This document shows, in pieces, positions 30,206 through 33,741 of a stretch of DNA of 33,741 nucleotides. The position numbers and the translations under genes are program-made. This stretch comes from Actinotalea fermentans ATCC 43279 = JCM 9966 = DSM 3133 (GTDB lineage Bacteria; Actinomycetota; Actinomycetes; Actinomycetales; Cellulomonadaceae), in contig AXCX01000014.1 of assembly GCA_000767215.1 (NCBI GenBank), forward strand, positions 1-33,741. Direction: 5' to 3'. The notes under the pieces are model-generated. The model ran no database searches, was not told the origin of the DNA, and worked only from the letters and a program-made list of their open reading frames with translations. Each line of letters opens with the position of its first letter. Position 1 is the first letter of the stretch.

Positions 30206-30766
30206 TCAGTCATGGCTCGCGGGCTCGTTCTCACCCGCTGCCACACGGCCGAGCACGAAGAGCAGGTCCGAGAGGCGGTTCACGTAGCCGCGGACCGCGG
30301 GGCTCACCGGGTGCCCGGCATCGCCCAGCGCGACGACGCTGCGCTCCGCGCGACGCAGCACGGCGCGAGCGAGGTCCAGCGCGGCCGACGCCGGGGTCGT
30401 GCCCGGCACCACGAACACCGGTCGCAGCGGTCGCGCGGCGACCCGCTCGTCGATCTCGCGCTCCACATCGGCCGCCATGTCCTCCGTCACGAGCGACACG
30501 CCCGGGACCAGGCGGTCACGGTGGGCCGGGTTGGTCGCCAGGTCCGCCGCGACGACGAAGAGCTCCCGCTGGCGCCGCAGGATCGCCGGCGCGAGGTCCT
30601 CGTGCGCTCCCGGCTCGCGCTCGAGCGCGGCGCGCGCCACGCCGAGCGCCGCAACGGCCTCGTCCATGTCGCCGCACGCGTCCATCAGCCGGTCGGCCTT
30701 CGAGACCCGGCCACCGAGGAACAGCCCCGTGGTGCCGTCGTCCCCGGCCCGCGTGTACACCTTCAT
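30206..30766 (-). CDS. pduO: PduO-type cob(I)alamin adenosyltransferase
   Basis: This 186-aa cytoplasmic enzyme makes adenosylcobalamin from ATP and cob(I)alamin. Motifs: the N-terminal ATP-binding VYTRAGDDGTTGLFLGGRVSK, DACGDMDEAVAALGVAR, the LRRQRELFVVAADLATNP helix, and the C-terminal TTPASAALDLARAVLRRAERSVVAL, YVNRLSDLLFVLGR. The ATG at 30766 has GAGAGGA 7 nt upstream. It diverges from the riboswitch-controlled ECF operon; the proximity suggests that imported corrinoid is adenosylated here. Confidence 0.93.
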   Translation of the reverse strand: MKVYTRAGDDGTTGLFLGGRVSKADRLMDACGDMDEAVAALGVARAALEREPGAHEDLAPAILRRQRELFVVAADLATNPAHRDRLVPGVSLVTEDMAADVEREIDERVAARPLRPVFVVPGTTPASAALDLARAVLRRAERSVVALGDAGHPVSPAVRGYVNRLSDLLFVLGRVAAGENEPASHD

Positions 30767-30873
30767 CGCCGGTCCTCTCTTCGTGCGGGCGGGCGCCGCC
30801 ATGGCGACGGCGGCGGCGTGGCCGACGCCGGACCGTCCTGGCCGCCGTGCGCACCCTGACCCAGGAGGAGGCG

Positions 30874-30996
30874 ATGTCGCAACCCGCGCCGGCCCGGGAG
30901 CCGCGCGTCGGGCAGAGGGAGTACGGTGGGCGCCGCCACCCTCGGGTGGCAGTCATGGCCCGCAGCCAGGGGAAGCCGGTCGAAGTCCGGCGCTGA
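30874..30996 (+). CDS. Short leader ORF overlapping the B12 riboswitch (tentative)
   Basis: An ATG at 30874 is preceded by AGGAGGAG (30863-30870), one of the best Shine-Dalgarno matches in the window, and opens a 40-codon frame ending with TGA at 30994-30996. The peptide begins MSQPAPAREPRVGQREYGG and ends QGKPVEVRR. The frame covers the 5' half of the riboswitch aptamer, so translating it would interfere with folding. It may be a leader peptide, or a chance SD. No -10/-35 pair is visible in front of it. Confidence 0.3.
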   Translation: MSQPAPAREPRVGQREYGGRRHPRVAVMARSQGKPVEVRR

Positions 30997-31045
30997 CCCG
31001 CAACCGTAGGTCGAGGTCTCCTCGACGAGCCGGAGCACCTGCTGA
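30921..31045 (+). ncRNA. Cobalamin (B12) riboswitch
   Basis: The aptamer core matches the family consensus: GGGGAAGCCGGTCGAAGTCC, then GGCGCTGACCCGCAACCGT (the CCCGCNACNGT block), and further down GAGCCGGAGCACCTGC (GCCNGGAGACCTGC block). The proposed ends are approximate; the GGT near 30926 fits the 5' conserved GGT. It lies 116 nt before the start of the DUF4430-like gene on the same strand. It should switch off the downstream uptake operon when adenosylcobalamin is plentiful. The downstream hairpins have no T-tract, so control is probably at translation or by Rho. Confidence 0.85.
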
Positions 31046-31087
31046 GGGCATCGAGGCTCCTACCGTCGAGGAATGCGGGGCGGAGCC

Positions 31088-31146
31088 CGGGTCGTCGGAC
31101 CCGTCCCTCGGGCGGCAGCGACGGTGCCGGGTCCTGTCGCGGACCC
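31088..31146 (+). promoter_or_regulatory. Competing hairpins between riboswitch and start codon
   Basis: CGGGTC-GTCG-GACCCG (31088-31103) and GGGTCC-TGTCGC-GGACCC (31129-31146) are two perfect stems. Their arms are related (GGGTC/GACCC), so arm one of the first can pair with arm two of the second instead. The second stem ends 5 nt before the SD AAAGAGG (31151-31157). This fits an expression platform, though neither stem directly masks the SD. Confidence 0.4.
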
Positions 31147-31161
31147 TCAGAAAGAGGCACC

Positions 31162-31890
31162 ATGCTCGTCACATCCACGCCCGTCACATCCACGCCCGTG
31201 ACCAGCCGGCGCGGGCCCCGTGCGCTGGCCACGGTCCTCGTGCTCGCCGGCGCCGTAGCGCTCCCGGCGTCGGCCGCGGTCGCGTCGTCCTGGCCTGCCG
31301 CTGTCGACGTGAGCGGCGCCTGCGCCGACGAGTCCGGCGTGACCGTCGTCGTCGACGCCACCGAGCTCGAGGGCGACGTCACGGTCGGCTGCGCGTCCGA
31401 CCCGGCGACCGGGACCGAGGCGCTCGCCCAGGCAGGGATCGCCGAGACGCGTGACCCCTCCGGCTACATCTGCGCCGTCGGCGGTCTGCCCGACCCCTGC
31501 CCGACGGAGTTCACCGGGAGCTACTGGAGCTACTGGACGGCCGCACCGGGCGGCGAGTGGACCGCGTACGCGGAGGGGTCCGACACGGCCGTCCCGGCCG
31601 CCGGGAGCGTCGAGGGATGGCGGTACGGCGACGGCACGCAGCCGCCGGCGGTCGCGCCCGCGGACGTGCGCCCGGGCGTCGCCACCGTCGAGGCCGAGCC
31701 GACCACCGACGCCGACGCACCCGCGGCGGACCAGGCGGCCGACGACGCCGTCACGGCCGTCGCGCCCCAGGACGGCGGTGACGGGGTGTCGCTCGCCGTC
31801 GGCGTCGCCGTGGGCGTCGCCATCGTCGGAGCCCTCGTCGGCCTGATCGTGCGCCTGCGTCGGCAGTCGCAGGGCTCCGCGAAGGACTGA
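31162..31890 (+). CDS. Secreted, membrane-anchored DUF4430-like protein
   Basis: The 242-aa protein has an N-terminal signal peptide (RRGPRALATVLVLAGAVALPASA), an extracytoplasmic domain (about 45-160), a low-complexity Pro/Ala/Asp linker and a C-terminal membrane anchor (SLAVGVAVGVAIVGALVGLIV) followed by a basic tail. The folded part has YWSYWTAAPGGEWTAYAEGS and later VEGWRYGDG, the pattern of DUF4430, the domain related to the C-terminal cap of transcobalamin. Four Cys (54, 77, 104, 113) could form two disulfides. It is the first gene after the B12 riboswitch and is followed by an ECF T-component, so it is a candidate surface corrinoid binder. The ATG has AAAGAGG 4 nt upstream. Similar proteins are annotated SCO2322-like. 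Confidence 0.7.
   Translation: MLVTSTPVTSTPVTSRRGPRALATVLVLAGAVALPASAAVASSWPAAVDVSGACADESGVTVVVDATELEGDVTVGCASDPATGTEALAQAGIAETRDPSGYICAVGGLPDPCPTEFTGSYWSYWTAAPGGEWTAYAEGSDTAVPAAGSVEGWRYGDGTQPPAVAPADVRPGVATVEAEPTTDADAPAADQAADDAVTAVAPQDGGDGVSLAVGVAVGVAIVGALVGLIVRLRRQSQGSAKD
31167..31196 (+). repeat. 15-bp tandem repeat at the 5' end of the DUF4430-like gene
   Basis: CGTCACATCCACGCC is present in two exact copies (31167-31181, 31182-31196), encoding two VTSTP units before VTSRR. Copy-number change would keep the frame and alter only the length of the N-terminal part before the signal peptide. Confidence 0.6.
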
Positions 31891-31896
31891 GGCGAC

Positions 31897-32961
31897 GTGA
31901 CGGCCCTGCACCCCCTCGCGTGGTGGGCGTGGGCGATGGCCCTGGCCGTCGCCGCTGCGCGCGCGCCCGGGGTCGGGGCCGTCACCGCCGTCCTCGCCGC
32001 CGTCGTCGTCGTGGTGAGCGTCCGAGCGGGCCAGGCACCGACGGCCCGTCTCTTCCCCGGCTACCTGGCGCTCGGGGTGGGCATCGTCCTCGTCCGGATC
32101 GCCTTCCACGTGGTCGTCGGCATCAAGCCGCCCGGGACGGTGGTCCTGGACCTGCCGACGGTGCGGGCACCCGACTGGGCCGTCGGCGTCCACCTCCTCG
32201 GCCCCGTGACGACGCAAGGGCTCGCCACCGCGGCGGCGGCCGGCCTGCAGCTCGCCACGCTCGTCGTGTGCTTCGGTGCTGCCTCCGCCCTCGCCGACCC
32301 GCGCCGTGCCCTGCGGTCGCTGCCGGGTGCCATGCACCACATGGGCACCGCCGTCGTCATCGCGGTGAGCGTCACGCCGCAGCTCGTCACGGCCGCCGCG
32401 ACCGTCCGCCGGGCGCAGCGCCTGCGCGGCACCCCCGAGCGAGGCTGGCGCGCTCTTCGCGCGACCGGCCTGCCCGTCTTCACCGACGCGCTCGACAGGT
32501 CGCTGGCTCTCGCCGCGTCGATGGACACCCGCGGGTTCGCGCGGTCCGGCCCGGACGGCCCCGACCGGCGGACGGGTCCACTCCTCGCGTTCGCGCTCGT
32601 CGCGCTGGGCCTCGGAGGCTACGGCCTCCTCGCGGACGACTCCGGCTGGCGCGGTGCACTGCTCGTCGGGGTCGGCGCCGCGGCCGGGTTCGCCGGCGTC
32701 GTGGTCGCCGGTCGGCGGGTGCAGCACACCCGGTACCGCCCCGAGCGGTGGGGACCGGCGGAGACCGGCGTCGCCCTCGCCGGCGCACTCACCGCCGTCG
32801 TCGTGCTGCTCGCGCCGCGGTTCGCGCCCGCGGCGGGCACGTCAGGACCAGGGACCGCCGCCGTCGCCGTGGTCGCCTTCCTCCTCGCCGTCGCCCCCGT
32901 GCTCGCGGGGCGTCGGAGCCACGCCCCTGTGACGCCCGTCCTTCAGGAGGTCGTCCGGTGA
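31897..32961 (+). CDS. ecfT: ECF transporter T-component (EcfT/CbiQ family)
   Basis: This 354-aa integral membrane protein has several hydrophobic segments. The coupling helix contains the family motif with its invariant Arg-Gly: ALDRSLALAASMDTRGFAR, R212-G213. A first related stretch is TVRRAQRLRGT. The family scaffolds the ECF transporter, joining the substrate-binding S-component and the ATPases. The GTG at 31897 follows the DUF4430-like stop by 6 bp with GAGG upstream. The S-component is not in the window; it may lie beyond the right edge. Its start and stop overlap or adjoin its neighbours, so this is one operon. Confidence 0.88.
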   Translation: MTALHPLAWWAWAMALAVAAARAPGVGAVTAVLAAVVVVVSVRAGQAPTARLFPGYLALGVGIVLVRIAFHVVVGIKPPGTVVLDLPTVRAPDWAVGVHLLGPVTTQGLATAAAAGLQLATLVVCFGAASALADPRRALRSLPGAMHHMGTAVVIAVSVTPQLVTAAATVRRAQRLRGTPERGWRALRATGLPVFTDALDRSLALAASMDTRGFARSGPDGPDRRTGPLLAFALVALGLGGYGLLADDSGWRGALLVGVGAAAGFAGVVVAGRRVQHTRYRPERWGPAETGVALAGALTAVVVLLAPRFAPAAGTSGPGTAAVAVVAFLLAVAPVLAGRRSHAPVTPVLQEVVR

Positions 32962-33741
32962 CGGCCCTGAGCTTCGACCGCGTGAGCATCACCTATCCGC
33001 GCTCGACCACCCCGGTGCTCCGCGACGTCACGCTGACCGTCCCGGAGGGCGAGCTGTGCCTCGTCGTGGGACCGACCGGTTCGGGCAAGTCCACCTTGCT
33101 GCGGGCGGCCTGCGGGCTCGTCCCCCACTTCACGGGCGGGACCCAGGCCGGCCGCGTCCTCGTGGCGGGCCGGGACACGCGGGAGCACCTGCCGCGCGAC
33201 CTGGCCGACGTCGTCGGCGTCGTCGGCCAGGACCCGGCCGCGGGCTTCGTGACGGGCACCGTGGAGGACGAGCTCGCCTACGCGATGGAGCAGCTCGGCG
33301 TCGCGCCGGCCACCATGCGCACGCGCGTCGAGGAGGTGCTCGACCTGCTCGGCCTGACCCCGCTCCGGGAGCGGGCCCTGGGTGACCTCTCCGGCGGCGA
33401 GCAGCAGCGGGTGGCGATCGGCTCGGTCCTCACGCCCGGCCCACGGCTCCTGCTGCTCGACGAGCCGACGTCGGCCCTGGACCCCGGCGCCGCGGAGGAG
33501 GTCCTCGCAGCGCTGACCAGGCTGGTGCACGACCTCGGCCTCACGGTGGTCGTCGCCGAGCACCGCCTGGAGCGGGTCGTGCAGTACGCCGATCGGGTCG
33601 TCGCCGTCGGCGCGGACGGGACCGTGGCGGACGGGCCGCCCGAGGAGATGCTCGCGGTCGTCGCGGCCGCGCCCCCGATCGTCGAGCTGGGCCGCTGGGC
33701 CGGGTGGCGCCCGCTGCCCCTGTCGGTCCGCGACGCCCGCC
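32958..33741 (+). CDS. ecfA: ECF transporter ATPase (3' end outside window)
   Basis: An ABC-type ATPase of the ECF importer, 261 codons visible and still open at the end. Walker A GPTGSGKST (K44), Q-loop VGQDPAAGF, signature DLSGGEQQRVAIGS (LSGG from residue 144), Walker B and D-loop LLLLDEPTSALD, and the switch His in VVVAEHR are all intact. The GTG at 32958 overlaps the ecfT stop (GTGA) with AGGAGG 7 nt upstream. The last visible residues (GRWAGWRPLPLSVRDAR) look like a linker, so a second ATPase domain in the same chain is possible, as known for actinobacterial ECF systems. Confidence 0.9.
   Translation, partial: MTALSFDRVSITYPRSTTPVLRDVTLTVPEGELCLVVGPTGSGKSTLLRAACGLVPHFTGGTQAGRVLVAGRDTREHLPRDLADVVGVVGQDPAAGFVTGTVEDELAYAMEQLGVAPATMRTRVEEVLDLLGLTPLRERALGDLSGGEQQRVAIGSVLTPGPRLLLLDEPTSALDPGAAEEVLAALTRLVHDLGLTVVVAEHRLERVVQYADRVVAVGADGTVADGPPEEMLAVVAAAPPIVELGRWAGWRPLPLSVRDAR

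What the first reader, a model, noticed from the sequence alone, without database searches (positions are those of the whole stretch)
30921..33741. B12-riboswitch operon pairing a transcobalamin-cap-like surface protein with an ECF transporter
A cobalamin riboswitch is followed by a secreted, membrane-anchored protein with a DUF4430-like YWSYW...GWRYGDG domain, then ecfT and an ecfA. DUF4430 resembles the beta domain that closes over cobalamin in transcobalamin and intrinsic factor. The DUF4430 protein could therefore capture or hand over corrinoid to the ECF importer, with a PduO adenosyltransferase next door. Its ligand has not been shown by anything in the sequence; riboswitch and transporter context are the evidence.
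Basis: partly seen in the sequence, partly recalled or inferred. Interest (0 to 1): 0.75.

Follow-up and report, generated by a model that had tools for sequence, protein, structure and literature searches.

The report
Vitamin B12 importer with surface lid
An actinobacterium carries a B12-controlled operon that pairs a vitamin B12 importer with a small surface protein related to the lid of the human B12 carrier transcobalamin, and its branch of bacteria appears to have kept the lid while losing the cup.

Summary
A cobalamin riboswitch (30926-31060) precedes a secreted, membrane-anchored protein, ecfT and ecfA; the contig ends inside the operon. Pfam's DUF4430 model misses the surface protein, but profile-profile comparison, once distant relatives are added, links its family to DUF4430 (E about 1e-5; score 34 against at most 17 in 60 shuffles). 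In 26 of 31 named relatives the operon continues to a second ATPase and an S-component; the other 5 contigs end too early. The S-component family strongly matches one solved structure: ECF-CbrT, a proven cobalamin transporter (E 6e-14). The genome has NrdJ and a MetH-like gene but no CbiC, so the strain probably scavenges B12.

In other Actinomycetota the lid gene usually has an alpha/alpha-toroid partner, counterpart of transcobalamin's cup (29 of 35 genomes examined). The window's branch lacks it (no hit in 14 of 16 lid-bearing genomes, weak partial hits in 2), and an S-component tree fits one loss. Burroughs et al. 2007 predicted transcobalamin-like B12-scavenging operons in low-GC Gram-positives, so the concept is known. 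The undetected actinobacterial family, its link to CbrT and cobalamin riboswitches, and the lid-without-cup branch look new.

The parts
30206..30802 (-). PduO-type ATP:cob(I)alamin adenosyltransferase, divergent neighbour of the riboswitch
   Evidence: PF01923 154.5 bits, TIGR00636 130.7 bits, both above cut-off; a homologue divergently upstream in 30 of 31 named relatives
30926..31060 (+). cobalamin riboswitch aptamer (RF00174)
   Evidence: 31.2 bits, gathering 31.5, E 2.6e-6; 31-sequence alignment, 10 of 25 predicted pairs with compensatory change
31075..31161 (+). probable expression platform: hairpin just upstream of, and a weaker one at, the ribosome-binding site
   Evidence: GGUCC/GGACC stem paired in 14 of 14 leaders; short CUC/GAG stem at the AG-rich site unchanged in 11, 11 and 12 of 14 for its three pairs; function inferred
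31162..31890 (+). membrane-anchored cap (lid) protein, 242 aa: hydrophobic N-terminus read as a signal peptide, DUF4430-like domain, linker, C-terminal transmembrane anchor
31315..31635 (+). DUF4430/transcobalamin-beta-like domain (about residues 52-158); cysteines 54, 77, 104 and 113 invariant in the 16-sequence alignment (77, 104 and 113 also in the 32-sequence one)
   Evidence: alignments; profile-profile to DUF4430 with distant members E 1.1e-5, E 6.2e-6
31795..31851 (+). C-terminal transmembrane segment of the cap protein (about residues 212-230)
   Evidence: Kyte-Doolittle mean 2.72 over 19 residues; a segment above 1.6 in the last 70 residues in 31 of 31 named relatives
31897..32961 (+). 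EcfT (CbiQ family) transmembrane protein
   Evidence: PF02361 29.2 bits, above the cut-off of 25
32958..33741 (+). EcfA ATPase, cut by the contig end
   Evidence: ABC_tran 97 bits; TIGR04520 ECF ATPase 172.6 bits, below its equivalog cut-off of 315

Best explanation
This is a cobalamin-repressed B12 salvage operon of a probable B12 auxotroph. When intracellular cobalamin is low, the riboswitch lets the cap protein and a dedicated ECF transporter be made (direction inferred from known cobalamin riboswitches). The cap is exported and stays tethered to the outer face of the membrane by one C-terminal helix. Its DUF4430-like domain, kin to the beta domain that closes over B12 in transcobalamin, binds corrinoid weakly and presents it to, or closes it onto, the CbrT-type S-component. 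The EcfT-EcfA-EcfA module then drives import, and the divergent PduO converts the product to adenosylcobalamin for NrdJ. Shown here: the operon, the riboswitch, the CbrT homology of the S-component family in relatives, B12-dependent enzymes in the genome, the family relation of the cap to DUF4430. Inferred: that the window's own S-component is of that type, that the cap binds corrinoid, and that it hands over to the S-component.
For: Riboswitch and divergent pduO in 30 of 31 named relatives. Those 31 loci were found by the cap alone; 31 have ecfT downstream, 30 also ecfA (L042 ends first) and 26 the S-component, the other 5 being at contig ends. The S-component profile (24 sequences) matches 6fnp_A at E 6.2e-14, next 5d0y at 0.25 and the folate S-component 5d3m at 0.57; 6FNP is ECF-CbrT, a demonstrated B12 transporter (PMC5997447, passages). 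Own genome: a PF02310 protein that I read as MetH, NrdJ 613.7 bits, no CbiC, a second riboswitch before a ribonucleotide reductase gene. Cap family related to DUF4430. In 46 of 58 distant genomes an RF00174 hit lies within 4 kb upstream of a lid, DUF4430 or toroid hit on the same strand. Isolated human TC-beta binds cobalamin, and its assembly with TC-alpha needs cobalamin (PMC5599065, abstract and passages).
Against: PF14478 does not match the cap, and the narrow family compares with DUF4430 at only 11% probability. The wide cap profile finds no transcobalamin in the PDB; the link runs through DUF4430, whose own PDB hits to transcobalamin are weak (E 0.11 and 1.8). No model could be made. The window's own S-component is not on the contig and was not searched for in the genome. 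No toroid, which supplies half of the binding site in transcobalamin, was found in the genome. Of 15 loci from the relatives set scanned at Rfam's gathering score only 2 reach it. The cap is not universal in the genus: 4 of 18 other genus genomes gave no match, and whether they have the transporter was not tested.
Confidence: 0.72

Rival explanations
1. The transporter imports B12, but the cap does not bind corrinoid: it is a structural or regulatory subunit, for example stabilising the ECF complex or docking a secreted carrier.
For: No toroid partner found in the window's genome; the domain is very divergent and no ligand residue could be mapped; CbrT itself gives high-affinity cobalamin binding (PMC5997447, passages).
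Against: In other Actinomycetota the cap lies near a toroid gene in 29 of 35 genomes examined and is fused to it in 4 loci, the pairing that binds B12 in animals; human TC-beta binds cobalamin by itself (PMC5599065).
Confidence: 0.2
2. A cobinamide, other cobamide or cobalt importer rather than a B12 importer: the operon answers to cobalamin but the substrate is a precursor.
For: CbiQ-family EcfT; cobalamin riboswitches also control cobalt transporters (recalled); ECF-CbrT also takes cobinamide (PMC5997447, passages).
Against: At E up to 1 the S-component profile matches only CbrT and, far more weakly, 5d0y and a folate S-component; no CbiC in the genome, so free cobalt could not be built into a corrin ring by the usual route.
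Confidence: 0.12
3. The DUF4430 resemblance is chance convergence of aromatic motifs, and the surface protein is an unrelated exported factor.
For: Below Pfam cut-off; 11% probability with the narrow alignment; the alignment covers about 71 columns at 23-25% identity.
Against: With distant members included, score 34.4 against 17.0 at most in 60 column shuffles and 7.0 reversed; three proteins match both profiles, weakly on one side (L094, L179, L196, 16-18 bits); both types occupy the same kind of operon with ECF and toroid genes.
Confidence: 0.05

Closest known systems
[quoted passage not shown] 2007, PMC1796856)
   Same: Secreted beta-grasp proteins fused to an alpha/alpha toroid in many cases, encoded with CbiO- and CbiQ-like genes in bacteria that usually lack key B12 biosynthesis enzymes, proposed to scavenge B12 (seen: abstract, passages, section 6, section 7 part 1 of 2, section 12).
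   Different: That paper places the clade in low-GC Gram-positives, planctomycetes and less often euryarchaea; 'riboswitch' does not occur in its main text. Here it is an actinobacterial family not found by PF14478, tied to RF00174 and a CbrT-type S-component, and the window's branch has no detected toroid.
ECF-CbrT of Lactobacillus delbrueckii (PDB 6FNP)
   Same: S-component homologue (E 6.2e-14); gene cluster with pduO (PMC5997447, passage).
   Different: No surface lid or toroid is mentioned in the passages seen; CbrT shares an ECF module with other S-components, whereas here T, A, A and S sit in one operon in relatives.
Human transcobalamin, haptocorrin and intrinsic factor
   Same: Toroid plus beta-grasp lid; in L094, L095, L096 and L104 toroid and lid domain are fused in the same order.
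   Different: The window protein has the lid only and is membrane-anchored; its wide family profile has no direct hit to transcobalamin.
SCO2322 family (NCBIfam NF040672)
   Same: 28.7-bit partial match over residues 121-156; Streptomyces-type cap proteins occupy the same operon slot.
   Different: Below the 85-bit cut-off; in those Streptomyces-type members the two halves of the domain appear in swapped order.

Membership tests
Cobalamin riboswitch RF00174 | score at or above the gathering score | tested here: not met
   31.2 against 31.5 bits; E 2.6e-6
Cobalamin riboswitch RF00174 | conserved core and covarying stems | tested here: met
   15-base core in 30 of 31 named relatives; 10 of 25 predicted pairs with compensatory change in 31 leaders
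Pfam DUF4430 (PF14478) | score above the curated cut-off | tested here: not met
   no match for the window protein or any of 32 family members scanned; 0 in own genome
DUF4430 homology (looser than membership) | profile-profile similarity above controls | tested here: met
   local 82% and 87%, global 71% and 80% with distant members included, E 2e-6 to 1e-5, controls far lower; only 11% local and 4% global with the narrow alignment
Transcobalamin family | alpha/alpha toroid in the same protein or genome | tested here: not met
   no hit in own genome with one toroid protein, a 4-row profile and a 48-row profile
Transcobalamin family | beta-grasp fold with beta-hairpin insert contacting B12 | not testable with these tools
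   structure prediction switched off
Transcobalamin family | corrinoid binding | not testable with these tools
   needs the bench
ECF transporter | EcfT and EcfA subunits | tested here: met
   PF02361 above cut-off; ABC_tran 97 bits
ECF transporter of CbrT type | CbrT-like S-component | tested here: inconclusive
   met in relatives; the window's contig ends first and the own genome was not searched for it
SCO2322 family NF040672 | score above the curated cut-off | tested here: not met
   28.7 against 85 bits

The most novel reading that the evidence does not exclude
A lid without a cup: after losing the toroid, this lineage uses the CbrT-type S-component itself as the cup. The membrane-tethered lid closes B12 directly onto the outward-facing S-component and so works as a built-in capture subunit of an ECF transporter, a transporter class whose S-component normally binds its substrate without any extracellular partner (recalled).
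Probability: 0.35. Interest if true: 0.78.

Novelty: new variant of a known kind. Interest (0 to 1): 0.58.

Why it matters
Identifying B12 transport systems in genomes is called an open problem in PMC6593275 (passage). This gives a riboswitch- and operon-backed marker for B12 import across Actinomycetota that the Pfam DUF4430 model misses. It extends a bacterial counterpart of the human B12 carriers to a second large Gram-positive group. The toroid-bearing and toroid-free branches form a natural experiment on what the lid does by itself.

Tried and rejected
Direct recognition failed: Pfam and NCBIfam do not name the cap, and PDB sequence searches with the window protein, the narrow family and the wide family give no transcobalamin, only chance-level hits (an oxidoreductase, antibodies, HisF barrels). 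The narrow family against DUF4430 gives only 11% probability (E 0.0026); the relation becomes clear only after distant members are added. The toroid profile hits squalene-hopene cyclases best (E 4e-50) and PF01122 in only 2 of 48 members, so by sequence the toroid is not specifically assigned to transcobalamin's alpha domain. A GGUGCC/GGCACC stem over the ribosome-binding site is visible in the window but RNAalifold did not choose it; I do not claim it. A loop-loop contact in the riboswitch was looked at by eye and not pursued. Literature searches: SCO2322 (0 papers); DUF4430 with cobalamin (2); DUF4430 (6); transcobalamin + bacteria + ECF transporter (4); transcobalamin-like + bacteria (3); ECF/cobalamin/S-component/actinobacteria/riboswitch (0); and (11 papers; 316, 15 listed; 396, 10 listed; 16, 10 listed). 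They cover only the open PMC set. Rodionov et al. 2009 (PMC2612444) is not held.

Riboswitch count: 46 of 58 distant genomes pass (positions copied by hand from earlier calls); the 12 that do not are G144, G088, G025, G040, G081, G113, G232, G156, G229, G059, G060 and G143. Some may be misses, because the listing was cut and its filters were strict, and some loci start at contig ends. Many of the 46 hits are at E up to 1e-3 and some are below the gathering score. Of the 13 window-clade genomes, 11 have a listed hit at the cap operon; G008 and G014 do not. Toroid count: 35 of the 36 other cap-positive genomes were examined (G070 was not fetched); without a nearby toroid are G138, G170, G025, G202, G320 and G095, the last at a contig end. 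The 60 loci were partly chosen for toroid or DUF4430 hits, and L105 and L182 are the same place; L178 had no lid hit.
Full report
WHAT IS THERE. The window is a complete contig (G000:C45, 33741 bases) of a genome whose nearest named relatives are Actinotalea and Cellulomonas species. At its right end, in order: pduO on the minus strand (30206-30802; PF01923 154.5 bits); a cobalamin riboswitch at 30926-31060 (RF00174, 31.2 bits, gathering score 31.5, E 2.6e-6); a 242-residue surface protein (31162-31890); ecfT (31897-32961; CbiQ 29.2 bits, above cut-off); and ecfA from 32958, cut by the contig end. At the gathering threshold the window has no Rfam hit, so the riboswitch claim rests on the E-value and on comparison. 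A 15-base core is present with at most 2 mismatches in 30 of 31 named relatives, and the window plus those 30 leaders give 25 predicted pairs, 10 of them with compensatory changes. At the gathering score only 2 of 15 scanned loci of the relatives set reach RF00174.

THE OPERON IN RELATIVES. The surface protein is found in 15 of 38 other genomes drawn from the genus, family and order: 14 of 18 in the genus and 1 in the order. A pattern-based scan of the GTDB species genomes with a 16-member alignment found 31 loci in Actinotalea, Cellulomonas, Georgenia, Ruania, Occultella, Pseudactinotalea, Homoserinimonas, Cryobacterium and others; it is not exhaustive. All 31 have ecfT downstream, 30 also have ecfA (L042 ends first), and 26 have an S-component; L033, L042, L043, L046 and L063 end too early. 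A pduO homologue sits divergently upstream in 30 of 31; L063, the outlier, has neither pduO nor the riboswitch core by these scans.

WHAT IT IMPORTS. The S-component is not in the window, and the genome was not searched for it. The S-component family (24 sequences from other genomes) was compared with the PDB sequences: 6fnp_A at E 6.2e-14, then 5d0y at 0.25 and the folate S-component 5d3m at 0.57, nothing else up to E 1. 6FNP is ECF-CbrT, shown to transport cobalamin and cobinamide, in a cluster nrdJ-cbrS-cbrT-pduO (PMC5997447, passages); that chain A is CbrT is my reading from its 182 residues and the match itself. The window's genome has the B12-dependent ribonucleotide reductase NrdJ (613.7 bits, cut-off 399.95), one PF02310 protein that I read as MetH, no CbiC while 7 of 14 control genomes ring, and one other cobalamin riboswitch, upstream of a second ribonucleotide reductase gene that I read as class Ia nrdA. 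Together these point to a B12-requiring strain; this is the only transporter found behind a cobalamin riboswitch in its genome.

WHAT THE SURFACE PROTEIN IS. It has a hydrophobic N-terminus and a C-terminal membrane segment, the latter in 31 of 31 named relatives too. Cysteines 54, 77, 104 and 113 are invariant in the 16-sequence alignment. PF14478 does not match it or any of 32 family members. A profile of the window's clade alone compares with a DUF4430 profile of 30 PF14478-positive sequences at only 11% probability (E 0.0026), but after adding distant members the local probability rises to 82-87% (global 71-80%; E 2e-6 to 1e-5). The alignment keeps the order of the xALxxAG helix, the G-(I/V)CxI-G strand, the W-x-YW strand and the final G-WRY strand. 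The score is 34.4, against at most 17.0 in 60 column-shuffled versions and 7.0 reversed; a separate run gives 85% and E 6.2e-6. Three proteins are reached by both profiles, weakly on one side: L094, L179, L196. The DUF4430 profile against the PDB gives four hits up to E 10: 3u7z (0.0084), transcobalamin-1 (0.11), an unrelated SUI1 homologue (0.18) and transcobalamin-2 beta (1.8). The wide cap profile itself finds no transcobalamin. So the chain is cap to DUF4430 (good) and DUF4430 to transcobalamin (weak here by sequence; DUF4430 is named as the C-terminal domain of transcobalamins in PMC4350170, passage). No fold could be predicted.

THE MISSING CUP. In the wider phylum the cap domain occurs in 37 of 296 genomes, the window's included. 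I examined loci of 35 of the 36 others: 29 have a toroid gene near the cap on the same strand, and 29 have ecfT and ecfA near it. In four loci the cap domain is fused behind the toroid and before cell-wall anchors (CWB2 in L094, L095, L096; SLH in L104): the domain order of transcobalamin plus a bacterial anchor. A toroid profile finds 82 of 292 genomes; some of these may be ordinary cyclases. Of 60 fetched loci, partly chosen for toroid or DUF4430 hits, the commonest gene orders are toroid-cap-T-A-S (15, plus 2 written T-A-A-S) and DUF4430-T-A-S-toroid (9, plus 6 where T was not detected) (neighbouring A genes are merged in that listing). In three genomes whose cap operon has no adjacent toroid (G138, G170, G202), a toroid hit elsewhere lies just downstream of its own cobalamin riboswitch hit, two of these three riboswitch hits being below the gathering score; this links toroid and cap beyond adjacency. 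In 46 of 58 distant genomes a riboswitch hit lies 134-3740 bases upstream of a lid, DUF4430 or toroid hit. The toroid family matches squalene-hopene cyclases best, complement TED domains weakly, and PF01122 (eukaryotic cobalamin-binding) in only 2 of 48 members.

The window's branch has no detected toroid: none within the fetched flanks (up to 7 kb each side) of 30 of 31 named loci (L063 has one), none in the own genome, and none in 14 of 16 cap-bearing genomes of the relatives set, with weak partial hits (23-24 bits) in G015 and G036. The 48-row profile was not itself run on a genome known to have the toroid; the 4-row profile was, and rang. In a quick tree of 72 S-components the 25 sequences of this branch form one group (SH-aLRT 99) among toroid-bearing lineages, as one loss would give. 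No bootstrap was run, the tool warned of long branches elsewhere in the tree, and three other rows labelled toroid-free (L103, L110, L195) fall elsewhere; L103's genome has a toroid at another locus (L104).

HOW IT MOST LIKELY WORKS. Low cobalamin releases the riboswitch; the cap is exported and anchored; it holds corrinoid at the membrane and passes it to, or closes it onto, the CbrT-type S-component; the ECF module drives uptake; PduO makes adenosylcobalamin. That an isolated lid can bind B12 has precedent: human TC-beta expressed alone was crystallised with cyanocobalamin and cobinamide, and TC-alpha and TC-beta assembled only with cobalamin (PMC5599065, abstract and passages). The lid function of the cap is inferred.

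WHAT IS KNOWN. Burroughs et al. 2007 (PMC1796856) defined the transcobalamin-like SLBB clade, noted its fusion to alpha/alpha toroids, its operons with CbiO- and CbiQ-like genes, and that the bacterial hosts usually lack key B12 enzymes, and proposed B12 scavenging; they name low-GC Gram-positives, planctomycetes and euryarchaea (seen: abstract, passages, section 6, section 7 part 1 of 2, section 12). The idea is therefore known as a prediction. What I did not find in print, within the searches listed in Tried and rejected, is the actinobacterial family below Pfam's threshold, its pairing with a CbrT-type S-component and RF00174 across the phylum, and the toroid-free branch.

VERDICT. The most testable new point is the lid without a cup.

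Noticed in passing
L183, L187-L191, L198, L110: Streptomyces-type (SCO2322-like) cap proteins and L110 match the cap profile as two separate stretches; reading L110, the half with the WxYW and GWRF motifs comes before the half with the VxVVID motif, which looks like a natural circular permutation of the DUF4430-like domain.
   Followed up: no
G000:C72:4554-4696 (L031): A second, stronger cobalamin riboswitch (75.4 bits) precedes a ribonucleotide reductase gene, read as class Ia, in the window's genome, while NrdJ is also present.
   Followed up: partly
G143:C8:26603-27369: A DUF4430 hit (27.7 bits) lies just downstream of a cobalamin riboswitch hit (27.1 bits), away from that genome's cap-ECF locus on C5.
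   Followed up: no
G137, G126, G067, G298, G223, G104, G276, G212, G115: In these DUF4430-type operons the riboswitch hit lies about 3 to 3.7 kb upstream of the DUF4430 hit, leaving room for an unexamined gene between them.
   Followed up: no
L102:5257-5643 and L106:11107-11502: Some loci carry a second cap gene beside the ECF genes; in G330 it has its own riboswitch hit at C5:48899-49039.
   Followed up: no
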